Assembly: GCA_021821305.1 (NCBI GenBank)
Contig: JAKACP010000001.1
Coordinates: 705,526 to 748,420, forward strand
Direction of reading: 5' to 3'
Source of the DNA: a bacterium
Lineage (GTDB): Bacteria > Patescibacteriota > Minisyncoccia > Moranbacterales > UBA1568
DNA length: 42,895 nt
Position numbers and translations under genes: made by a program. Each line of letters starts with the position of its first letter. Position 1 is the stretch's first letter. Below the pieces are notes generated by a model. The model was given only the letters and a program-made list of their open reading frames with translations, had not been told where the DNA came from and searched no databases. This document shows positions 11,538 through 23,279 of the stretch, piece by piece.

Positions 11538-12461
11538 TCAGCGGATTTTCCGCGGGATGACTTCGAAGGAGAGATGCTCCTGGTCCTTTCTCGTGAACGG
11601 ACGCGGATAGAGGTCCGCGCCGCGGAACGGAAGCGTCTCTCCCTGATATTCGAAGAATTCGTCGAAGAGATCGACGAACCGTTCGAACCGATCGGCGCTT
11701 CCGGTAGGACTCGTCTCGAGGAGAGCGGAGAGCACGGGGAGGTATTTCCCTCCGATGAGCTTCCGCGCGACGAGCCACGCGAGGAAGTGATCCGGGACCC
11801 GGCCCTCCTCGTACCAATCGCGTATCTCGCGTGCTTCTCCGAAATCGGTCGGCCAGAAGATCGTCGAATCGCGCGCCGCTTCGCGCATCCCGTCCGAATA
11901 CGCCCACAGCTTGCGGTTCACGTCCCGGGAGACGAGCCATTCGGACGCCTTCCGCCGCTCCAGATCCGCGAGGAGTATTTGCAGGAGAAGTGCCCGATCG
12001 CGGAGCGAGACCGAAAACGTGATACCCCTGCGGCGCGGAATCTCCTTTTCCCAGACGAGACCGGATTTCCTCCACCGCGGAAAGTACATGGTGACCCGCC
12101 GCGGATCCTTTCTCCACCGCCGCATGCGCTCGTGGGCGATCGCGACGATCCCGTCCACGAGATGCGGCCAGAGAGCTCGCAACCGGGTACCGAGGAGCCG
12201 GTTCCCGCGGAACGTCGGATAATCCTTGTAGGGATATTCCCGCCGCATCCCGATCATCGAGACGAGCTCGAGCCCGTGCGACCCGATCTCCCAGACGACG
12301 ATCGATTCCTTTTTCCCGTTCGGGATTTCCTTGGCGACACCCGTCTCCCGTCCGAATCGGACCGGATACGAATGCTCGAGGATGGGATGCCCTCTCCCGT
12401 CGAGGAGGAAGGTCTGCCGGTACGGCAGGATCTCTCCTTGGTCGAACAATTCCTTCTGCAT
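11538..12461 (-). CDS. Hypothetical 307-aa protein
   Basis: Long non-repetitive ORF MQKELFDQGEILPYRQTFLLDGRGHPILEHSYPVRFGRETGVAKE...; hairpin and T-run downstream (about 11503-11540). No family recognised. Confidence 0.75.
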   Translation of the reverse strand: MQKELFDQGEILPYRQTFLLDGRGHPILEHSYPVRFGRETGVAKEIPNGKKESIVVWEIGSHGLELVSMIGMRREYPYKDYPTFRGNRLLGTRLRALWPHLVDGIVAIAHERMRRWRKDPRRVTMYFPRWRKSGLVWEKEIPRRRGITFSVSLRDRALLLQILLADLERRKASEWLVSRDVNRKLWAYSDGMREAARDSTIFWPTDFGEAREIRDWYEEGRVPDHFLAWLVARKLIGGKYLPVLSALLETSPTGSADRFERFVDLFDEFFEYQGETLPFRGADLYPRPFTRKDQEHLSFEVIPRKIR

Positions 12462-12596: not shown

Positions 12597-13061
12597 TTAT
12601 CCCGCGGAAGGAACGCGGATCAGGCGGAACCGCCTCGCGAGACGATCGTGCCATTCCTCGCAATGGCGATCCCACAGCACATCGAGACTCGGTTTATAGC
12701 CGTGCTTCTTGGTCCACTCTTTCGCATGTTCGGAAGCTATGAGGAGAAACGCGAACGCTCCCCAGGCTTCCGGCGACACGGCCTTCTGCAGACCGCAGGC
12801 CTCCAAGGAAAAATGTTCCGGACCGCCCGACTTGAGCCAGTCCTCTTCCCTCCGCTCGAGCGGACAGTCGACGACGGACTTGCAGCGCAGGCAGGCTTCG
12901 TGGATTTCCTGGTTCTGTTTTTCGTACAGGGCGATGAGGCTGCAGACTTCGGCCATGGTGCCCGATGACTTGATGGATGCCAGCCACTCCTCCGCCGCCG
13001 ACGGATTCATTTCTTTGAAAAGACCGAGAAGCCGGTCGAACTCAGCACATTCCTGTTCCAT
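12597..13061 (-). CDS. Hypothetical protein (about 154 aa)
   Basis: MEQECAEFDRLLGLFKEMNPSAAEEWLASIKSSGTMAEVCSLIALYEKQNQEIHEACLRCKSVVDCPLERREEDW...; start chosen at ATG 13061 rather than the upstream start at 13301. Confidence 0.7.
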   Translation of the reverse strand: MEQECAEFDRLLGLFKEMNPSAAEEWLASIKSSGTMAEVCSLIALYEKQNQEIHEACLRCKSVVDCPLERREEDWLKSGGPEHFSLEACGLQKAVSPEAWGAFAFLLIASEHAKEWTKKHGYKPSLDVLWDRHCEEWHDRLARRFRLIRVPSAG

Positions 13062-13203
13062 GATCCCCTCCGTATAAGAAGAACATGTCGACATTCTTCT
13101 CCTTTGCACCTCGGTTGTCAAGGACGCCGATTTTCGCGAAAAAACCGCGCGAATAGCGTTGCCGATAAGCGGATATGATTTGTCAGACGTTGATCCGTTC
13201 AGA

Positions 13204-14250
13204 TCACGAGGCCAGGTGCCGCCGGAAAAACTCGGTTGTCTGTCGCATGAAGTCCGTCCAGCGCGGACCGAACTCGTGCGCTTCCCCGTCATAGACGACA
13301 TAGTCGAGCGCTTTCCCCTCCGTCTTCATGAGCTCGGCAGTCCTATCCGACCACTCCTTGGGCACGCTCTCGTCCCTCGTCCCCTGGAAGAGGATCATCG
13401 GCACCGAGATCCGCTCGACATAGGTCGCGGGCGAGAGGGCATCCCATACGGGACCGTTCTCCTCGGGGGTGCCATAGCGCTCGCGGATGCGCTCCGCCCG
13501 TTCGGGATTCCTCGCCATGTATTTGAAATACGAATCCCGATAGTCCATGGAGATCGGCGCGTAGAGCGCGATGGCGTCGACCAGATCCGGTTTCGCCACC
13601 GCGATCGTCTGTGCGATTCCTCCGCCCATCGAGTGTCCGAGCATGCCGATATTTTCCTTGTCGAAATACGGGAGCGATGACGCGCGTACCGCATAGACAG
13701 CGTTGATCACGTCCTCGACATATCCGAGTCGGTTCTCGAGTTCGCCGTCGTCCACGCGGCTCGACTGCGCGTGATTGCGGTAGTCCGGATGGATCACGAC
13801 GAATCCCTGCCGGGCGAGATAGTCCTGCTCGCGGCGCAATCCGCGCCCGTTGGTATAGATGGCCGGATCGATATAGCCGTGGTTGAGGATGAGCACCGGA
13901 AACGGTCCGGCGCCCGAAGGCACGTTCATGATGCCCGAGATCGAGAGCTCGCCGCTCCGGTAGGTGATGTAGTAGCGGGTGTACGCGTCGTGACGCTCGA
14001 GTATCTGTCCCACGGAAAGATCCCTCCCGTCGAAGTTCTTGTCAACCAGCTCCTCGATGGACGGCCACGTCGGAGATACGACCGCATTCGGGTTCGGCGC
14101 CTCGGCCGGGTCCGACGACGTATCGCCCGCGCGCTCCGGAAGTACGGCGACGCCGGGAGCCGATTCCGGACGCATGAGAAAAAACGCGACGAGCCCGACC
14201 GTCGCGACGACGACGGCGATGACGATGATCGGTCGTGCGGAAAAAATCAT
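13204..14250 (-). CDS. Alpha/beta hydrolase (prolyl oligopeptidase / dienelactone hydrolase type), membrane-anchored or secreted
   Basis: N-terminal TM; HPDYRNHAQSS, nucleophile elbow GMLGHSMGGGIAQ, FQGTRDESVP and YDGEAHEFG (Ser/Asp/His triad). Confidence 0.88.
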   Translation of the reverse strand: MIFSARPIIVIAVVVATVGLVAFFLMRPESAPGVAVLPERAGDTSSDPAEAPNPNAVVSPTWPSIEELVDKNFDGRDLSVGQILERHDAYTRYYITYRSGELSISGIMNVPSGAGPFPVLILNHGYIDPAIYTNGRGLRREQDYLARQGFVVIHPDYRNHAQSSRVDDGELENRLGYVEDVINAVYAVRASSLPYFDKENIGMLGHSMGGGIAQTIAVAKPDLVDAIALYAPISMDYRDSYFKYMARNPERAERIRERYGTPEENGPVWDALSPATYVERISVPMILFQGTRDESVPKEWSDRTAELMKTEGKALDYVVYDGEAHEFGPRWTDFMRQTTEFFRRHLAS

Positions 14251-14612: not shown

Positions 14613-15353
14613 TCAGGATGTCGAGCCTTTGAGGTAGTGGTCGAGGGTGTAGATCCAGTTCTCGTCGTCCTCCTCGCCGCGCTCCCTCGCCATGACCTTC
14701 TGATTGAGGAGCCACGCGAGATAGCTCGCGTCCTCGGACGCGACTTTTTTCACATCCTCACCGGAATATTTCCCGAAATTGAATTTTCGGATGAGGATCG
14801 GGCGAGCGGACACCGCGAGCATCTCATGGAGCACCGCTCCCTCGTCGCCGAGCGTCCCGAGCATCTTCGTGAAATGGAAGTCGAACAGCGCGCGGAGCAC
14901 GCGCACATCGCCCAAGGCATCGTGCGCCGAGGCATCCTCGACGTCGAGGTCGTGGTAGTAGCGCAGGTACTGCAGATTGTATTTCGGGATCTCCCCCGTG
15001 ATATCGAGGTGATGCGCCACCTTGAAGGTGTCGATCATCCCCCCGACCGCGATCCCCTCGCGCGCGAGCATGTCCGCGTCGAATTTGGCATTGTGCGCGA
15101 CGAGGACGGCGCCCGAGGCGAAGATATCCGAGAGCTCCCGATGCATCTCCGATTCCGCGAACGGTGGGAACGCTCCCACCATCTTGTTCGTGATCCGCGT
15201 CACGACCATTGCGTCGATCGAGATCGGCACGGGCGGACAGAAAAGCGACTCGGCCTCCTGGCCGCCGAACTCGTACGCCACCTGGCACAGCCGGTCCTCC
15301 GGCCCGATGCCCGTCGTCTCCGTGTCGAGAAATATGAGTTTGGTCCTGTCCAT
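14613..15353 (-). CDS. DnaQ-like 3'-5' exonuclease with exodeoxyribonuclease X-type C-terminal domain
   Basis: LIFLDTETTGIGPEDRLCQVAY (ExoI DxE), VLVAHNAKFDADML, SAHDALGDVRVL (ExoIII), C-terminal KFNFGKYSGEDVKKVASEDASYLAWLLNQ. Confidence 0.88.
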   Translation of the reverse strand: MDRTKLIFLDTETTGIGPEDRLCQVAYEFGGQEAESLFCPPVPISIDAMVVTRITNKMVGAFPPFAESEMHRELSDIFASGAVLVAHNAKFDADMLAREGIAVGGMIDTFKVAHHLDITGEIPKYNLQYLRYYHDLDVEDASAHDALGDVRVLRALFDFHFTKMLGTLGDEGAVLHEMLAVSARPILIRKFNFGKYSGEDVKKVASEDASYLAWLLNQKVMARERGEEDDENWIYTLDHYLKGSTS

Positions 15354-15409
15354 AGGCTTTTCTTGATATATTTCTCTCCAGTATACACCTGTCCGGTCCA
15401 TCTGTCCGC

Positions 15410-15443: not shown

Positions 15444-15555
15444 TCAGGGCCTTGCAGAGAACCGCGGCGGACGCAAGGACGGAATGGAAAAAATTCCATC
15501 GTCAACTGTAGTACAGGGTACGGCACCTTCACAACCCGTTTCAGAGGAGACCATC

Positions 15556-16095
15556 ATGGCCAAGAAACCCCGTCGCACCGTCCCCGTACCCGCCTCGCTC
15601 GCCGAAGCCAACCACTCCCTCTTCCGCCTCGGTGCCATCGACCGCGCGGTCGCCGCCATCGAAAGCGGGCTCGAGGAAGAGATCGCCCGGCTTCGCAAGG
15701 AAGCCGAAGAAAAAAGCGCTCCCTTGCTCGCGGAACACGCCGATCTCGCGACCGGCCTCGAGGTCTTCGCCCGGGCCAACCGCGAGACGCTCCTCGCACG
15801 CGACAGGAAGTCCGTCCGGACCTCGGCCGGCACCTTCGGCTGGCGCGTCACTCCGTACAAGGTGGAGTTCCTGCGCGGCGCCGACAAGGTCCTCGCCGCG
15901 ATCAAGAAACTCAAGCTCAAGAAATATATCCGCGTCACGGAGTCGATCGACAAAAAAGCCCTGCTCAAGGACCGCCCCGTCATCGCCGGCGTGAAATACG
16001 CACGGCGCGAGGAATTCTTCTATGCAGTCTCCTCGGAGACCACGACGGATCCGGATGCGCCGGCCGATGCCGCCCTATTCGCCAAAACCGCCTAA
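15556..16095 (+). CDS. Host-nuclease inhibitor Gam family protein (phage Mu Gam-like)
   Basis: N-terminal coiled coil, then RDRKSVRTSAGTFGWRVTPYKVEFLRGADKVLAAIKKLKLKKYIRVTESIDKKALLKDRPVIAGVKYARREEFFYA, typical Mu Gam C-terminal pattern; RBS aggag upstream. Confidence 0.82.
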   Translation: MAKKPRRTVPVPASLAEANHSLFRLGAIDRAVAAIESGLEEEIARLRKEAEEKSAPLLAEHADLATGLEVFARANRETLLARDRKSVRTSAGTFGWRVTPYKVEFLRGADKVLAAIKKLKLKKYIRVTESIDKKALLKDRPVIAGVKYARREEFFYAVSSETTTDPDAPADAALFAKTA

Positions 16096-16140: not shown

Positions 16141-16386
16141 TCATATCTTCCCGATCAGTTCGAGCTTCTGGGCGCGGGAGAGCCGCTTGATACGGGATTC
16201 CTCGCGGGACGCCTCCGAACGATTCTCGAACGCTCGCGAGAAAACGAGCGAGACCGGTCTTCGCCCCCGCGTATATTTCGCCCCGAGCGTCGAACCGTTG
16301 TGCTCGAGAATCCGACGCTCCACATCGGTCGTGATGCCCACGTACAGCGTCTTGTCCGCACATTGGAGGATATAGAGGTGATACAT
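16141..16386 (-). CDS. GIY-YIG nuclease family protein (UvrC/YhbQ-like)
   Basis: MYHLYILQCADKTLYVGITTDVERRILEHNGSTLGAKYTRGRRPVSLVFSRAFENRSEASREESRIKRLSRAQKLELI. Confidence 0.93.
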   Translation of the reverse strand: MYHLYILQCADKTLYVGITTDVERRILEHNGSTLGAKYTRGRRPVSLVFSRAFENRSEASREESRIKRLSRAQKLELIGKI

Positions 16387-16495: not shown

Positions 16496-17932
16496 TTATG
16501 CCTGCAATATTTTCTTTAATCGATTCACCAAAAACTCGTCAAATCTATCCGGATCCTCCTTGCGCGTTCTAATCATCTCAATGAGATCGCCACCACCAAT
16601 TGGGAATATTAAGCACCTCTGAGCGAGAAAGTGTCTACGTGCTCTTTCGATATCTTTGTCCTGAACTTCTTTCCTTGATATTAGAAACACCAACTCTCTA
16701 CCATTTGCAAGAGTGTACGCCCTCCCCTGGTTGAATTCGTCGTTAGAAATTCTGCTACTATCATAGTTTTTCGCTTCAATAACCAGAAGTCCAGATTTGA
16801 TTTGCTGGTTTCTTATCATTTTGAAAAGTGGCGTGTTTGCACCATTTCCGAAGACAACGTCGTATCGAAAAATACCATCTACCGAACAATCCTCTCGTGT
16901 CCCGCTCGTTAGATGGCCATCATACAGCGCAGTAAAAATCTTTCTGAGAAACTCGGAAAATCTGCTAGCACCGCCTTTTCCAGAAGGGATTTTTTTAAGC
17001 TCCTCAATATAAGAACTCCAGTTTTCCTTTCCTTTTTTTCTTTTCTTACGCCGCTCATCATCAAAGATATTTGGGTTTCCAACATAATCAGCTACCAGCT
17101 CTGGTCTATTTTTGGCAATTTTTCTGATTGCAGCCGTCTTCTTACCGAAACGACTCTTCAAGTCATTTTCTACTTGCTTCAGAGAAACTTTCGGCTTCTT
17201 ACCTATTGATCTAGTTGTTATTATTCGCTGCTCCTCCTCGTGCTTTAAAAAATATCTCAAATAATTCTGATAAAATCCTTCCGGACTGAAAATTGGGATC
17301 TTCCGAACTAGGTGCTTGGGCACAAAAATCCTCGGTTCGCAAAATCCGTCTTCTTCGAAGTAGGGAAGCCTCACTCTTGGTATGGGGCGCCACGTAAATG
17401 AAAAGGGGTCTAATGCACGCTCAATTTGAATATCAGTCGTTTTAAGCCCGTAAAGTTTTACCTGTTCCTCTGTATATTGGATTAGATACGAAATACCAAA
17501 ATTCGCCACCAAATCTGAAAGCGTATCCGGACCAACTTTAGGAATAACGATCGACATCTTGGCAAGAGCCTCTACTCCGACTTCATGCACAGTTTCGTTA
17601 TCGAAGATTTCATTCTTTATTGCAATCGCTTTTTCCTCCGCCCCTCCCCTTCCATTTTTCCCATTTTTACAGTAACCGAGAGCTATATGGCTAACTTCCG
17701 GAAATTCAAGCGCTGCTTCAAGCTCATCTGAAGTTATCGCGCCCTCTCTATAAGAATTTAGGTAACGATTAAAGTATTCGTAAATAAGAGCCTGCACCTT
17801 GTGCCATCTGGTTTCTGGTGAATGATACAGGAGATTCAAATCAATATAAACAGGAGTGTCGTCCTTGCTGGGAAAAACGAAATCGACTTCATGCGGTTTA
17901 TACTCCTTTATCAATTCGCCGAGAGTAATCAT
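16496..17932 (-). CDS. Large protein with putative C-terminal PD-(D/E)XK restriction-endonuclease-like domain
   Basis: ASRFSEFLRKIFTALYDGHLTSGTREDCSVDGIFRYDVVFGNG...SGLLVIEAKNYDSSRISNDEFNQGRAYTLANGRELVFLISRK (D-x(n)-EAK core); the N-terminal ~330 aa could not be assigned. Confidence 0.65.
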   Translation of the reverse strand: MITLGELIKEYKPHEVDFVFPSKDDTPVYIDLNLLYHSPETRWHKVQALIYEYFNRYLNSYREGAITSDELEAALEFPEVSHIALGYCKNGKNGRGGAEEKAIAIKNEIFDNETVHEVGVEALAKMSIVIPKVGPDTLSDLVANFGISYLIQYTEEQVKLYGLKTTDIQIERALDPFSFTWRPIPRVRLPYFEEDGFCEPRIFVPKHLVRKIPIFSPEGFYQNYLRYFLKHEEEQRIITTRSIGKKPKVSLKQVENDLKSRFGKKTAAIRKIAKNRPELVADYVGNPNIFDDERRKKRKKGKENWSSYIEELKKIPSGKGGASRFSEFLRKIFTALYDGHLTSGTREDCSVDGIFRYDVVFGNGANTPLFKMIRNQQIKSGLLVIEAKNYDSSRISNDEFNQGRAYTLANGRELVFLISRKEVQDKDIERARRHFLAQRCLIFPIGGGDLIEMIRTRKEDPDRFDEFLVNRLKKILQA

Positions 17933-17945
17933 TTACATGGAAAAA

Positions 17946-18461
17946 TCAGATTAACCCTAATTCTTTAGCCCTGTAATATACCGCCTGCCCGGAAACTCTG
18001 AAGATAGATGCGATCCTGGCTTTCTTAAAGTCGATATCTTCCCTTATCGCATTCCATCTTTCAATAAAAATCTCCTCAGGCATCAGAAATGCCGCGGAAA
18101 AATGATCGCAAAACCTTTCTTCTCCGCTTGCGGAGTATATCTCCCCCTCGGAAAAACCAAAGGCTTTTTCGGAATTTCTGATAATATGTGCAATTTCATG
18201 ACACAACGTGAAGCGCTGCCGATACTCATAATCTCGACCGTTGACGAAAATCCTATACTCCCCGATTCCCGGATCAAAATACTCGAGACCAGAAACAGTA
18301 AACTCATCGGAATTCTTGAACGAAACAGTTATTCTTATGCCGAAATTTTCTTCTGTCCATCGAATCAGCGACAAGATGGATGGCATCGTGTCCCCGAGAC
18401 TGGAATATATGGCGCCTGCTGTTTGTTCGGCATCATTATTTATTTTTTCAAATCCATCCAT
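17946..18461 (-). CDS. ImmA/IrrE family metallo-endopeptidase
   Basis: QRFTLCHEIAHIIRNSE (HExxH) and EERFCDHFSAAFLMPEEIF (ExxxxxFAxxLLMP-type motif). Confidence 0.92.
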   Translation of the reverse strand: MDGFEKINNDAEQTAGAIYSSLGDTMPSILSLIRWTEENFGIRITVSFKNSDEFTVSGLEYFDPGIGEYRIFVNGRDYEYRQRFTLCHEIAHIIRNSEKAFGFSEGEIYSASGEERFCDHFSAAFLMPEEIFIERWNAIREDIDFKKARIASIFRVSGQAVYYRAKELGLI

Positions 18462-18464
18462 ATG

Positions 18465-18791
18465 TCATTTCAAACGGTCAATCATACCCTCGATAATACG
18501 AACGTCCTCATCATTGCTTATGTTATATTTTTTCCTCAAATATACCTTGAGAGGTGCATGATCATCCTGTTCAGCATCAATGACTTTCAGCATATCGAGA
18601 ATCTCCTTCACTTTGACATTGAATCCTTTAGCCAGCTTGATAATCGTAGCGAGAGACACATTCCTACTATCGAAATCCCCTTTTTCGATTCGAGAGAGAA
18701 AACCCTTGGACAAATCAGTTTTTTCGGCCAACTGTTCAAGCGTATCAGCCGAGTTTTTCCTGTAATCCGCAACGAGATTGCTGAGTTTCAT
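18465..18791 (-). CDS. XRE family HTH transcriptional regulator
   Basis: LEQLAEKTDLSKGFLSRIEKGDFDSRNVSLATIIKLAKGFNVKVKEIL, canonical XRE HTH. Confidence 0.93.
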   Translation of the reverse strand: MKLSNLVADYRKNSADTLEQLAEKTDLSKGFLSRIEKGDFDSRNVSLATIIKLAKGFNVKVKEILDMLKVIDAEQDDHAPLKVYLRKKYNISNDEDVRIIEGMIDRLK

Positions 18792-18795
18792 ACTG

Positions 18796-18842
18796 GTAAA
18801 ATAAGTTTACTTTAGATTACACGAGGCGCAGAAGGTTGTCAA
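18796..18842 (-). promoter_or_regulatory. Promoter of XRE-ImmA-nuclease operon with overlapping inverted repeat (putative operator)
   Basis: Minus strand TTGACA (18837-18842)-17 bp-TAATCT (18814-18819); inverted repeat GTAAA-ctTat-TTTAC at 18796-18810 near expected +1. Confidence 0.75.
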
Positions 18843-18860: not shown

Positions 18861-18884
18861 AAAAAAGGAGCTACAGGCTCCTTT
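18861..18884 (-). terminator. Terminator downstream of res, separating the two island operons
   Basis: aaaaaaggagctacaggctccttt: GGAGC(C)/GGCTCC stem with T-run on minus strand. Confidence 0.7.
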
Positions 18885-18998
18885 TCCCATTCAAGCTTCC
18901 AAAGATTCTCACTATGTATCCGCCGGATTTCTTATTCACATCGCTCTCACATATGCGGATAACTTTCCAGCTTTCTTTTTTCAATTACCTATTCCTCT

Positions 18999-21317
18999 TT
19001 ACAATGGAAGTTTCTCCCAATCACCCCAATCACCTTTCTCGCATTTGTCCCAGTTGTAAGATTTCTCGCTATTAAGAAGCCACCCGCCGTTGTGTTCAAT
19101 GGCAATGCCTCCAAAGAGGTCTTTCCGATTTTGCGAGGCAATCCATGCTTGAAGGGCTTCCGCTTTGGCCTTGGTCGTCGTCTGACCTTCGCGATCGGTT
19201 TTGTGTTTCACTTCGAAAGTACCGATACTCCCATCGGAAAAACGGATGATATAGTCCGGATAAAAGGTATTGACCCCATCCGAATACTCGTATCGGATGC
19301 CGAAGTAGTCCTGCTTATTCTCGCCGTTTTTCCACCACCAAGAAATCTGCGTCGCATTCGAGTCGAGAAACTTCTCGAAATGTTGTTCCGGTTCTGAGCG
19401 GTCCGTGCCGAGATAACATTTATCATACGCATATGGCGCGATGGTCGAAACCAGCTCGTCGGTATGCTCGTTGAAAAACTGTTCCTCCGGTAAATCGAAT
19501 TCGTAGAAGCGTTCGCTTGCGGCGACCTTCTCACGGACTTCCCTGTCCTTCACGGACTTATATTCGTCGATCGCCTTGGAAACGATGCTCTCGAAAATTG
19601 CCCGATTGCCATTGTGCACGAAAATCTTCTGTATCAACAGTATTTCCTCGTGCCAGTTCTCTGATCCGAGGCTCCTCTTGAACCAACTGTAGATGGCGGT
19701 CTTCACGGTCGGGACGGACCGCTTCATGCCACGGAAAGTTCCGAGGTTGTTCTTGATGGTCTGTTCGAACAGCGTCTGTAGGTCATTCCCGGCGATAGTC
19801 AGACGTGCGAGCGCGTCCGGTGTGATCTTTCCCTCCAAGTCATCGAACGACTCCCCGTCCAATTTCGTGTCGGCGATGATTTCCTGCTCGTACCGCTTCA
19901 CGTCCAAGGATATCCCGCTCTTCTCAACGAGTTCCACGCACTGCTGAGGAAGCATCCGACTTCCGTCGATGCCGAAGTGTTCGTTTGCGACCCGACTGAA
20001 GACGGCGGTAAAGCTTGAGGTTACATCCCCATAATCGACGCGGGCTTTGTAATAAGAAACAAGCTTGATCGGCTGATAGCTCGGAATTCGATTCGCTTTG
20101 AGATGTTTGATGATGTTCGGATTGTATTCCTCCTTCTTCACCATGATGCTCTGCACGTTGGTGTAGATGTAACCGGTATTGAGACTCTCGTCATCATAAT
20201 GTTTCTGCTCCGGCATACGAAGGATACGACCAACTGTTTGGATCTCGAAAATTGCGCTTTTCGATTCGCGGAATTTCACCAAGATGTGTGCCCGCGGACA
20301 ATCCCACCCTGTATCGATAGCCTGCTTGAAAATGAGAAATTCAATCTCGTTGTCCGACTCGGAAATCCAGTCGATTGTGTCGGATTTCTGCTCCGAAAGC
20401 CAGATTGCAAGTTTGCGATTCTTCTCGGTCACGCCCTTCCCGGAAAGGAATTTTTTCACGGCCGCGATCTTTTCCTCACCAGCCTCGGCAGTCGGAATCT
20501 GGATAAGGACGAGCGGATTCACGGAAGAACCCATATGAACGAACGCATCCTTCAATTCGAGCCGCTTACGATATGCGGCTTCAAGTACGATTTCCTGGGA
20601 ATCCGTTTCGCTCTCTATGATCTTGCCAATTCCCTCGTTGATGATCAGTTCTTTTTTGATCATCCCCTCCTCGATAACATCCTTGGAATTCACCTTCACA
20701 TACCCCGCAGACTTGTCGATGATTTCATCGGCGCTCGGCTTGAGCCTTGGTGTGGCGCTCATTTCGATGACAACGTCCGCGGCGATTTCGTCTCGGAGTT
20801 CGTTGGTGCGTGCCGCGGTGGAACCGATATGACTCTCATCAATGATCATGATAATCCGTCGCTGTTCCCTTGTTTTGGAAAGAACATCGCGGAAGCTTAA
20901 GTTCTCTCCATCTTTCATAAGGAGGTTTTTCCACTCGCCCTCCTTGTCCTTCGACCGGAGCTTTTCCCAGTTCGCTACTACAACCTCATTGCGGACTATA
21001 CGCCTCCGACCTCCGTTGAATTCCTCCTCGACAAGGGAAACCCGCGGCGACCCATCAAAAATACGCTCGAGGCTGTGTTTGCTCTGCAGATGCAGGTCGC
21101 CCTTGCCGATACTCATCCAGACGAAACAAAGATCCTCTTCCGGAAGTTCCCGGATGATGCTTTCGATAAATTTAGCGGTCATGATGGTCTTACCACTCCC
21201 TGTCGGCGCCTGGAAGACACACACCTCGCCATCCCCCGGACGGTCAAGGAGATGTTTTACGGAAGTAGTCAGTTCATCGACCGCTCGATCCTGATAGGCT
21301 TTGAGTTCAATATTCAT
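18999..21317 (-). CDS. Type III restriction-modification system endonuclease/helicase subunit (Res)
   Basis: MNIELKAYQDRAVDELTTS...VFQAPTGSGKTIMTAKF (Walker A), IIMIIDESHIGS (DExH), FKQAIDTGWDCPRAHILVKFRE and TVGRILRMPE (motifs V/VI), C-terminal FYPDYIIRFSDGSIGTFEVKHKTD (PD...ExK). Start set at ATG 21317. Confidence 0.93.
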   Translation of the reverse strand: MNIELKAYQDRAVDELTTSVKHLLDRPGDGEVCVFQAPTGSGKTIMTAKFIESIIRELPEEDLCFVWMSIGKGDLHLQSKHSLERIFDGSPRVSLVEEEFNGGRRRIVRNEVVVANWEKLRSKDKEGEWKNLLMKDGENLSFRDVLSKTREQRRIIMIIDESHIGSTAARTNELRDEIAADVVIEMSATPRLKPSADEIIDKSAGYVKVNSKDVIEEGMIKKELIINEGIGKIIESETDSQEIVLEAAYRKRLELKDAFVHMGSSVNPLVLIQIPTAEAGEEKIAAVKKFLSGKGVTEKNRKLAIWLSEQKSDTIDWISESDNEIEFLIFKQAIDTGWDCPRAHILVKFRESKSAIFEIQTVGRILRMPEQKHYDDESLNTGYIYTNVQSIMVKKEEYNPNIIKHLKANRIPSYQPIKLVSYYKARVDYGDVTSSFTAVFSRVANEHFGIDGSRMLPQQCVELVEKSGISLDVKRYEQEIIADTKLDGESFDDLEGKITPDALARLTIAGNDLQTLFEQTIKNNLGTFRGMKRSVPTVKTAIYSWFKRSLGSENWHEEILLIQKIFVHNGNRAIFESIVSKAIDEYKSVKDREVREKVAASERFYEFDLPEEQFFNEHTDELVSTIAPYAYDKCYLGTDRSEPEQHFEKFLDSNATQISWWWKNGENKQDYFGIRYEYSDGVNTFYPDYIIRFSDGSIGTFEVKHKTDREGQTTTKAKAEALQAWIASQNRKDLFGGIAIEHNGGWLLNSEKSYNWDKCEKGDWGDWEKLPL

Positions 21318-23010
21318 AGATTTCTTGGTAGATATCCAAAATCTTCTGCGGAATGGGGTCCAAACGTACACCGGACCACATGGAAAAATCATCCTTATCC
21401 AAACCAAGCGGATCGAGCGTGAAGCAGTAAAGCAGCTTCTCCCCATCCAACTTGTCCAACTCTTTCTTGAGACTCTTCAACGCGGCGCGTTCGATGGAAT
21501 AATATACCGCCATGAGCCGATCGTTCTGTCGGAAAATCCGATAGTCGTCGCTGCTTGCCAACTCGTCGAATATCCCTTCCCGCAGGCACAGCATCTCCGT
21601 GCACTCCCGCGCGACACGGATCTTAAGCTCGTCCCGGTTGACACTCTTTTTCACGAACTCGGTCTTGAAATACTTAAGATTGCCGCCGAGACCTTCTACC
21701 TTCGAGCCCTTTTCCGTCTTATAACCAGCCATCACATTTTTTACTCGAGGATAACAAACATCTACACAAATCCCATTTTCATTATTAGTAGTCAGAATAA
21801 ATGACCTATGGCCACCATCCTTATTCAATTCAAGAATCGCGTGGCCAGTCGTGCCGGAGCCAGCAAAGAAATCCAATACCACTGCATCCTTCTTATGTTG
21901 AAGAAGAAGTTCAAGTGGTTTAATAACGGCATGCAAAGACTTCGGGTAATCAAAGGCCTTCCTTTTTCCGAGAATTTTTTGCAATAAAACCGTCCCATGG
22001 GAAGATGCATCGAACATTGGATCAATCCAGATTGTCTTCGGCTTCCTACCATCTTTTATCCTGTCCTTCATTAAAACGGTATACCCGTTTTTTGTCTTCT
22101 TTATAACCATATCGCCACGCGCCACAGCAAGCATAAGCGAAGGGCGAGTCTGGCGCCAGACTCGTTTTTTCCCCGAGCTATCTATTGGAATAATTTCAAC
22201 ACAGCCGGGTATATTTTCTATGCCAATATAACCATTTTCCTCATTGTAGTAAATCGGATAATGCGAATTCGGACGCTCTTCAGGAGTAGAAAGGCCGCCA
22301 CTTCGTCGAAATGGGAGCAGGCGATATCTTGATATATCATCTTCAAACTTGAAAACCGCCGCCTGTTCATCGGTAAGCGGCATATTTTTCAACTCGGCCG
22401 TTTCTGCATTTTTTGCATAAAAAAGAATGTACTCGTGAGAAGTAGCGAAAAACTTATTCGTGGTGCGACCCCGCGGATTTATTTCGATTGCCAGGATGCC
22501 GACCCTGTTCTGTTCCCCAAAAATCTCATCTAACAATAAACCTATTGGAAACAACTCATAGTCATCAATAGTCAACACAAAAAAACCATCCTCTTTAAGA
22601 AGGGCGCGAGCTAAACGCAACCGTTTACTCATGAATGAGAGCCACTTGCTATGGCGAAATGAGTCATCAAGATCGACGTAATCATTGTTGTAACGCCAGC
22701 TTTTGTTTCCGGTATTGTATGGAGGATCGGCATAAATAACATCTATCTTTCCAGCGTGGGTATAATTCAAAACCGATAAGGCGTGATAATTATCACCCTC
22801 AATCAAAATGTTCGTCGGCTTGCTCGAATCAGTTGCAATTTCCTTGCCCTTGATTTCTTTCAAAACCGGCAGTGCATTTTCTGCCTCCTTTTCGAATTGC
22901 TCTTTCGTCCGTTCCTCATCCCAAATCAACCCGTATTTTTTTCGGGATTCCAGTTTTTCAATAGCCTTAAGCAAGTCCTCTTTTTCAAGTTTTGAATAAT
23001 CTTTTGCCAT
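21307..23010 (-). CDS. Type III restriction-modification DNA methyltransferase subunit (Mod), beta-class N6-adenine
   Basis: IDVIYADPPYNTGNKSWRYNNDYVDLDDSFRHSKWLSFMSKRL (motif IV DPPY first), later VVLDFFAGSGTTGHAILELN (motif I); overlaps res by 11 bp. Confidence 0.94.
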   Translation of the reverse strand: MAKDYSKLEKEDLLKAIEKLESRKKYGLIWDEERTKEQFEKEAENALPVLKEIKGKEIATDSSKPTNILIEGDNYHALSVLNYTHAGKIDVIYADPPYNTGNKSWRYNNDYVDLDDSFRHSKWLSFMSKRLRLARALLKEDGFFVLTIDDYELFPIGLLLDEIFGEQNRVGILAIEINPRGRTTNKFFATSHEYILFYAKNAETAELKNMPLTDEQAAVFKFEDDISRYRLLPFRRSGGLSTPEERPNSHYPIYYNEENGYIGIENIPGCVEIIPIDSSGKKRVWRQTRPSLMLAVARGDMVIKKTKNGYTVLMKDRIKDGRKPKTIWIDPMFDASSHGTVLLQKILGKRKAFDYPKSLHAVIKPLELLLQHKKDAVVLDFFAGSGTTGHAILELNKDGGHRSFILTTNNENGICVDVCYPRVKNVMAGYKTEKGSKVEGLGGNLKYFKTEFVKKSVNRDELKIRVARECTEMLCLREGIFDELASSDDYRIFRQNDRLMAVYYSIERAALKSLKKELDKLDGEKLLYCFTLDPLGLDKDDFSMWSGVRLDPIPQKILDIYQEIYEY

Positions 23011-23185: not shown

Positions 23186-23207
23186 GACATCTCCATGTTA
23201 TTTCCAG

Positions 23208-23279
23208 CGCCCTGAGGAGGAGTCGAACCTCCGAATCCTCGATAGAAGCGAGGCGGTTTATCCATTAGCCTACCAGGGC
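23208..23279 (-). tRNA. tRNA-Arg (anticodon UCU)
   Basis: Minus strand GCCCTGG TA GGCTAATGGATAAACC G CCTCG CTTCTAT CGAGG ATTC GGAGG TTCGACT CCTCC TCAGGGC G: full cloverleaf with one C-A mismatch in the D stem; anticodon TCT; CCA not encoded. Confidence 0.92.

What the first reader, a model, noticed from the sequence alone, without database searches (positions are those of the whole stretch)
16496..18791. XRE - ImmA/IrrE protease - PD-(D/E)XK-like protein triad: candidate undescribed defence or abortive-infection module
Seen: three minus-strand genes with gaps of 3 and 13 bp, own promoter, XRE regulator first, HExxH ImmA/IrrE peptidase second, 478-aa protein third. The third has a C-terminal D...EAK nuclease-like core and a ~330-aa N-terminal region I cannot assign. 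Established: ImmA-type peptidases can cleave XRE repressors to derepress mobile elements, and XRE plus Zn-peptidase pairs occur in toxin-antitoxin/defence contexts (RosmerTA-like). Inference: the peptidase senses infection or damage, relieves XRE repression and licenses the nuclease; its location beside a Type III R-M system supports a defence role.
Basis: partly seen in the sequence, partly recalled or inferred. Interest (0 to 1): 0.75.

Follow-up and report, generated by a model that had tools for sequence, protein, structure and literature searches.

The report
Protease-switched nuclease operon in defence island
A small bacterium carries, on a foreign-looking stretch beside a restriction system, a three-gene operon in which a repressor and a protease of a familiar pair probably switch on a two-part DNA-cutting protein; the protein's family is already listed as a candidate phage defence, but its front half has no known fold and this pairing with the switch was seen nowhere else.

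Summary
In detail: XRE (108 aa), ImmA/IrrE-type M78 protease (171 aa, HExxH intact) and a 478-aa protein lie in one minus-strand operon (gaps 3 and 13 bp). A hand-read promoter lies upstream, and a terminator separates the operon from the Type III R-M genes before it. The third protein does end in a PD-(D/E)XK-like nuclease domain: D358, E386, K388 and Q402 are conserved, and Foldseek's best PDB hits are FokI, Nt.BspD6I and MspJI, though weak. It is not undescribed: it is a remote relative of PADLOC's phage-defence candidate PDC-M36A (E=3.5e-28). Its ~285-aa front domain matches no Pfam family or solved fold; it occurs alone on small plasmids and fused to one of two nuclease types in prophages and R-M loci. 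In 5 of 8 same-phylum genomes the gene lies within 5 kb of a DNA methyltransferase (0.35 expected, P=6e-6). The triad itself is not conserved: of 48 other loci, three have an M78 gene within 5 kb, none in a comparable operon. Operon and R-M genes form a 45% GC island in a 60% GC region. Most likely a defence nuclease under a CapH/CapP-like protease-repressor switch: a new variant of a known kind.

The parts
18465..18791 (-). XRE/Cro-type HTH repressor, 108 aa (first gene)
   Evidence: Pfam HTH_3 2.4e-10; PADLOC capH 7.7e-8 over residues 3-108
17946..18461 (-). M78 (ImmA/IrrE-type) zinc metallopeptidase, 171 aa; H88-E89-x-x-H92, E115
   Evidence: Peptidase_M78 3e-20; PADLOC capP 2.3e-18, profile 3-153 of 242; alignment
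16496..17932 (-). 478-aa two-domain protein, remote PDC-M36A relative
   Evidence: PADLOC PDC-M36A 3.5e-28 over residues 14-455; phrog_27295 5.1e-24
17078..17932 (-). N-terminal domain (about residues 1-285), no known fold; invariant D25, D31, E79, G86, G94, G96, D136, S139, D140, T154, W181, P205 in a 14-sequence alignment
   Evidence: occurs alone in 300-320 aa plasmid proteins
16499..17020 (-). C-terminal PD-(D/E)XK-like nuclease domain (about residues 305-478): D358, E386-A-K388, Q402
   Evidence: alignment; secondary structure and Foldseek
18814..18842 (-). Probable sigma-70 promoter: TTGACA - 17 bp - TAATCT
   Evidence: read in the sequence; not listed by the consensus scan
18796..18810 (.). 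Perfect palindrome GTAAA-N5-TTTAC, possible XRE operator
   Evidence: only match in the window with up to 1 mismatch; weak statistically
18863..18885 (-). Intrinsic terminator AAAAGGAGC-CTGTA-GCTCCTTTT(TT), separates R-M from triad
   Evidence: inverted-repeat scan
18999..21446 (-). Type III R-M restriction subunit (Res)
   Evidence: ResIII 2e-17; REase_III 1.3e-18
21307..23010 (-). Type III R-M methyltransferase (Mod)
   Evidence: N6_N4_Mtase 2.2e-30; MTase_III 2.4e-82; the only DNA methyltransferase of three families found in the genome
16450..23100 (.). Low-GC island (45% against 60% around it) holding triad and R-M; tRNA-Arg at its right edge

Best explanation
A horizontally acquired defence nuclease under a protease-triggered switch. 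At rest the XRE protein represses its own promoter, so little of the 478-aa protein is made. A stress signal, most likely single-stranded or damaged DNA during phage attack, activates the M78 protease, which cleaves XRE and derepresses the operon. The 478-aa protein then cuts DNA with its C-terminal PD-(D/E)XK domain, while its N-terminal domain, an unassigned module found also on its own, supplies recognition or control. Shown: gene order, intact catalytic motifs, terminator, nuclease-like fold, family link to PDC-M36A, enrichment beside R-M genes, foreign GC. Inferred: autorepression, cleavage of XRE, the signal, DNA as substrate, and the phage-defence outcome.
For: PDC-M36A, capP and capH profile matches. 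Catalytic D/E/K/Q conserved across prophage and genomic relatives. AF2 of the window protein (pLDDT 73) and of relative L073 (pLDDT 87, pTM 0.87) show helix/strand order typical of PD-(D/E)XK; best Foldseek PDB hits are FokI, Nt.BspD6I, MspJI and EcoT38I, best named viral hits are Mrr/restriction endonucleases. Relatives lie inside or beside Type I, II, IIG and III R-M, Septu, RosmerTA and AbiU; 5 of 8 genomes within 5 kb of a methyltransferase, P=6e-6. CapP is activated by ssDNA and cleaves CapH beside immune operons (PMC13373217); PprI is likewise activated by ssDNA (PMC10904395). Terminator and promoter make the triad its own unit.
Against: No nuclease, protease or anti-phage activity tested. 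Foldseek E-values are weak (about 0.01) and TM-scores low. The M78 protein matches only positions 3-153 of the 242-position capP model. The triad recurs in none of 48 other loci with this domain, so functional coupling rests on operon structure in one genome. The possible operator is statistically weak.
Confidence: 0.5

Rival explanations
1. A three-component toxin-antitoxin (RosmerTA-like) module: XRE and the M78 protein together neutralise the 478-aa toxin at protein level and infection breaks the complex, killing or stalling the cell.
For: XRE-COG2856-toxin three-component systems predicted (PMC2701414); the ImmA domain is a hub antitoxin with diverse toxins in NetFlax/RosmerTA (PMC10440598); split XRE + M78 pairs are followed by PIN-like genes in same-phylum genomes (L119, L123; PIN assignment by reading the sequence); M78 matches RmrA models at 1e-11.
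Against: The effector is large and two-domain; its relatives mostly stand without any M78 partner, so the protein does not need one; no RmrT in the operon; the RosmerTA next to a relative in Roseomonas already has its own RmrT.
Confidence: 0.25
2. An R-M accessory or stand-alone restriction factor: the 478-aa protein recognises incoming DNA by itself (or assists the neighbouring Type III system), and the XRE/M78 pair is an unrelated regulatory passenger.
For: Relatives are embedded between HsdM and HsdS (L031) or inside another Type I R-M locus (L108); R-M proximity is non-random; the C-terminal domain alone overlaps a gene annotated as cytosine methyltransferase (H58) and is attached to a different N-terminal part in Rhodococcus L024.
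Against: The triad has its own terminator and promoter apart from R-M; the 3- and 13-bp gaps argue for co-expression with XRE/M78; many relatives lack an R-M neighbour.
Confidence: 0.17
3. A mobile-element control region: XRE/M78 is an ImmR/ImmA-like switch left from an integrated element and the 478-aa protein is element cargo that serves the element (for example exclusion of competitors).
For: Low-GC island beside a tRNA-Arg; relatives abundant in prophages and plasmids.
Against: No integrase, relaxase or replication gene seen in the island; no tRNA-end duplication at the left edge, longest shared word 9 bases.
Confidence: 0.08

Closest known systems
PADLOC PDC-M36 (phage-defence candidate; PDC-M36A + PDC-M36B)
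   Same: The 478-aa protein matches PDC-M36A nearly end to end (E=3.5e-28); same N-domain plus type-1 C-terminal nuclease.
   Different: Only a remote member (about 19-25% identical to the relatives aligned); no PDC-M36B gene (two copies follow PDC-M36A in L063 and L064); carries XRE/M78 instead.
CapH/CapP regulators of CBASS and other immune operons
   Same: Small HTH protein followed by M78 protease at the head of a putative defence operon; PADLOC capP 2.3e-18 and capH 7.7e-8.
   Different: Protease is shorter (model positions 154-242 absent); effector is not CBASS or any operon named in the passages read (PMC13373217).
RosmerTA (RmrA/RmrT)
   Same: HTH and M78 domains; RmrA models hit the M78 protein at 1e-11.
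   Different: HTH and protease are separate genes; no RmrT found; effector does not match RmrT models.
FokI / Nt.BspD6I / MspJI type restriction endonucleases
   Same: PD-(D/E)XK catalytic domain at one end of a two-domain protein; best structural hits.
   Different: N-terminal domain has no convincing match in PDB; overall TM-scores are low.

Membership tests
PADLOC PDC-M36 | PDC-M36A-like protein | tested here: met
   PDLC04597 E=3.5e-28, residues 14-455; no PADLOC score cut-off was available
PADLOC PDC-M36 | PDC-M36B gene(s) next to it | tested here: not met
   L063 and L064 have two PDC-M36B genes directly after M36A; in the window the next gene is an 81-aa GIY-YIG and XRE, M78, Res and Mod have no M36B hit
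CapH/CapP | HTH + M78 protease pair heading a defence-type operon | tested here: met
CapH/CapP | Full-length CapP and CapH profile matches | tested here: inconclusive
   capH 7-99 of 103 matched; capP only 3-153 of 242
CapH/CapP | ssDNA-stimulated cleavage of CapH and derepression | not testable with these tools
   needs biochemistry
RosmerTA | RmrA antitoxin (HTH-M78) with an RmrT toxin | tested here: not met
   No RmrT among the operon genes or the Type III R-M next to it; contrast L069, which has both
PD-(D/E)XK nuclease superfamily | D...(D/E)xK catalytic residues conserved | tested here: met
   D358, E386, K388 (and Q402) at least 90% conserved in 14 sequences
PD-(D/E)XK nuclease superfamily | Core fold | tested here: inconclusive
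   Best Foldseek hits are PD-(D/E)XK enzymes with probability up to 0.95, but E-values 0.008-0.1
PD-(D/E)XK nuclease superfamily | Nuclease activity | not testable with these tools
   needs purified protein
Type III R-M (neighbour) | Mod and Res genes | tested here: met
   MTase_III 2.4e-82, REase_III 1.3e-18

The most novel reading that the evidence does not exclude
The N-terminal ~285-aa domain is an unrecognised invader-sensing or targeting module that bacteria and mobile elements use alone or attached to interchangeable PD-(D/E)XK nucleases, and that has been linked repeatedly to DNA-damage-responsive control (XRE/M78 here, umuD/umuC genes beside PDC-M36 on two plasmids).
Probability: 0.25. 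Interest if true: 0.68.

Novelty: new variant of a known kind. Interest (0 to 1): 0.42.

Why it matters
The family behind PDC-M36A has no Pfam or NCBIfam match and no solved structure, yet its N-terminal domain is spread over plasmids, prophages and R-M loci of several phyla. This locus gives it a testable switch (protease plus repressor) and intact catalytic residues, so one operon can test both whether the family defends against phage and whether M78 proteases license nucleases. If the genome is a Patescibacterium, as its size suggests, it also adds to the poorly known defences of these very small bacteria.

Tried and rejected
Conserved triad: rejected; an HMM of M78 against all ORFs in 49 loci with the N-domain found M78 within 5 kb in 4 including the window. 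Roseomonas L069, which first looked like a second triad (XRE-M78 fusion 8 bp upstream), is a RosmerTA with its own RmrT. Full PDC-M36 membership: rejected for lack of M36B. Close relatives in phages: none by tblastn in INPHARED and none in IMG/VR with the window protein itself; relatives were reached only through alignments. Homologues in the 95 other genomes of a 96-genome relatives search: none. Sequence search of PDB with the 478-aa protein: nothing significant. A 14-sequence family alignment was too diverse to search with. Mobile island with att repeats: no tRNA-end duplication found. SOS control: no LexA-box-like sites upstream of umuD/umuC in L063/L064 with four simple patterns. The term PDC-M36 is in no held paper; the first CapH/CapP paper is not held.

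Full report
OBSERVATION. The first is an XRE/HTH_3 protein and the second a Peptidase_M78 protein; the third has no Pfam or NCBIfam family. The protease keeps H88-E89-x-x-H92 and a conserved third Glu. Between the Res stop codon (18999) and the XRE start (18791) lies a good intrinsic terminator (18885-18863). It is followed by a hand-read TTGACA - 17 bp - TAATCT promoter and a perfect 5-N5-5 palindrome just before the ATG. The palindrome is the only such site in the window, but 20% of shuffled short windows contain one, and the consensus scanner did not call this promoter. The triad is therefore most likely its own transcription unit.

WHERE IT LIES. The triad genes have 40-43% GC, Res 50% and Mod 44%, against 60% in the rest of the window. 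So triad and Type III R-M together form a ~6.6-kb foreign-looking stretch with a tRNA-Arg at its right edge. No duplication of the tRNA end was found at the left edge. In the family genomes looked at around the M23-peptidase relative, neither triad nor R-M genes are next to it, and no relative of the 478-aa protein was found in the 95 other genomes of the relatives search.

THE 478-AA PROTEIN. PADLOC assigns it to PDC-M36A, a phage-defence candidate (E=3.5e-28, residues 14-455), and PHROGs to phrog_27295. Relatives were collected from seven other same-phylum genomes, plasmids, prophage-like IMG/VR contigs and the Pseudomonadota set. The alignments show two parts. The N-terminal ~285 aa carry motifs built on D25, D31, E79, G86, G94/G96, D136-xx-S139-D140, T154, W181 and P205. 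This part occurs alone as a 300-320 aa protein on plasmids of Acinetobacter, Bacillus, Rhodococcus, Arthrobacter, Micrococcus and Staphylococcus. The C-terminal part is one of two nuclease-like types. The window has type 1, with D358, E386-A-K388 and Q402. Type 1 also occurs without the N-domain, for instance in Rhodococcus L024 behind a different N-terminal part.

FOLD. AlphaFold2 gave pLDDT 73 for the window protein and 87 (pTM 0.87) for the prophage relative L073. Foldseek against PDB puts Nt.BspD6I, MspJI and EcoT38I first among hits of the window model, and FokI and Nt.BspD6I first for L073. The viral library returns Mrr/restriction endonucleases. E-values are weak (0.008-0.1) and whole-protein TM-scores low, so the PD-(D/E)XK assignment rests on motif, secondary-structure order and consistent hit identity together. 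No convincing match was found for the N-terminal domain.

NEIGHBOURHOODS. Fused relatives lie beside or inside Type III (L034), Type I (L031 between HsdM and HsdS; L108), Type IIG (L033, L040) and C5-methyltransferase (L030) loci, Septu (L023), a methyltransferase-helicase locus (L039), RosmerTA (L069) and AbiU (L107). Several others have no defence neighbour that I recognised (L028, L029, L043, several prophage copies). In eight same-phylum genomes I counted DNA methyltransferases over the Pfam cut-off. Five of eight M36A-like genes are within 5 kb of one, against 0.35 expected (P=6e-6). The count covers three families only and few genomes, and defence genes cluster in any case. In this genome the Mod gene was the only methyltransferase of the three families found.

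IS THE TRIAD A MODULE? No, on present evidence. An HMM of the M78 family against every ORF in 49 loci with the N-domain found M78 within 5 kb in four: the window, Acinetobacter L017 (divergent), Micrococcus L071 (2.4 kb away) and Roseomonas L069. L069 looked like a second triad until PADLOC showed the XRE-M78 fusion to be RmrA (1.2e-108) with an RmrT upstream (8.7e-15). Conversely, relatives of the M78 gene in the phylum (18 other genomes of 290) sit with XRE genes before PIN-like genes or near methyltransferases in several cases, never with an M36A-like gene that I recognised (neighbours there were read from sequence, not scored).

MECHANISM. M78 proteases cut XRE-type repressors: ImmA/ImmR and the link to toxins are summarised in PMC2701414, RosmerTA in PMC10440598. 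CapP, activated by ssDNA, cleaves CapH beside immune operons (PMC13373217), and Deinococcus PprI is activated by ssDNA (PMC10904395). The window pair matches capH nearly whole and capP over its protease part only. The best reading is a CapH/CapP-like switch over a PDC-M36A-like nuclease. Motifs, operon and fold are shown; cleavage, signal, substrate and outcome are inferred. A toxin-antitoxin reading, with XRE/M78 neutralising the protein directly, is the main rival; against it, most relatives have no such partner.

SIDE LIGHT. The two closest PDC-M36A loci (L063 Leptolyngbya, L064 Methylobacterium plasmids; E about 1e-240) are followed by two PDC-M36B genes and preceded by umuC genes, with umuD in L063. 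Both umuC genes look broken or truncated, and no simple LexA-type box was found, so a damage-control link is suggestive only.

VERDICT. Real, well-formed and probably a defence operon. The effector family is already a listed candidate, and the regulator pair and three-gene layout are known kinds. New are the pairing, its setting in a very small genome, and the finding that the family's N-terminal half is an unassigned domain that also stands alone on mobile elements.

Noticed in passing
window 15484-16095 (+): A bacteriophage Mu Gam-like protein (PF07352, 4.9e-27) lies in normal-GC DNA just outside the island, next to an ExoX-like exonuclease (14613-15401) and a GIY-YIG nuclease (16141-16386). 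Relatives in 5 of 25 other family genomes; the same-genus copy (G001) has two in-frame stops in the match.
   Followed up: partly
window 23207-23279 (-): tRNA-Arg(TCT) at the right edge of the low-GC stretch; in most family relatives checked the same tRNA sits between tRNA-Lys and tRNA-His, often near the same M23 peptidase gene.
   Followed up: partly
L063:3145-7173 and L064:3883-7116: PDC-M36A followed by two PDC-M36B genes directly downstream of umuC on plasmids of a cyanobacterium and an alphaproteobacterium; both umuC genes appear broken or truncated.
   Followed up: partly
L017, L018, L020, L021, L065, L068, L041, L025, L071: The N-terminal domain alone (about 300-320 aa) on plasmids, including a 4.6-kb Bacillus plasmid with only two annotated genes and a qacA plasmid of Staphylococcus; function unknown.
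   Followed up: no
L031:6458-10536: An M36A-like gene embedded between HsdM and HsdS of a Type I R-M operon, with overlapping ends (7914/7921 and 9379/9416).
   Followed up: partly
L122:3674-4451: An M78 protease gene 69 bp upstream of the start of what reads as a C5 DNA methyltransferase at a contig end: another possible protease-R-M pairing in the phylum.
   Followed up: no
L030:9288-10271: A 327-aa protein between an M36A-like gene and a C5 methyltransferase has no Pfam or PADLOC match; possibly a Type II restriction enzyme.
   Followed up: no
window 11538-12461 and 12597-13301 (-): Two predicted proteins (307 and 234 aa) without any Pfam match.
   Followed up: no
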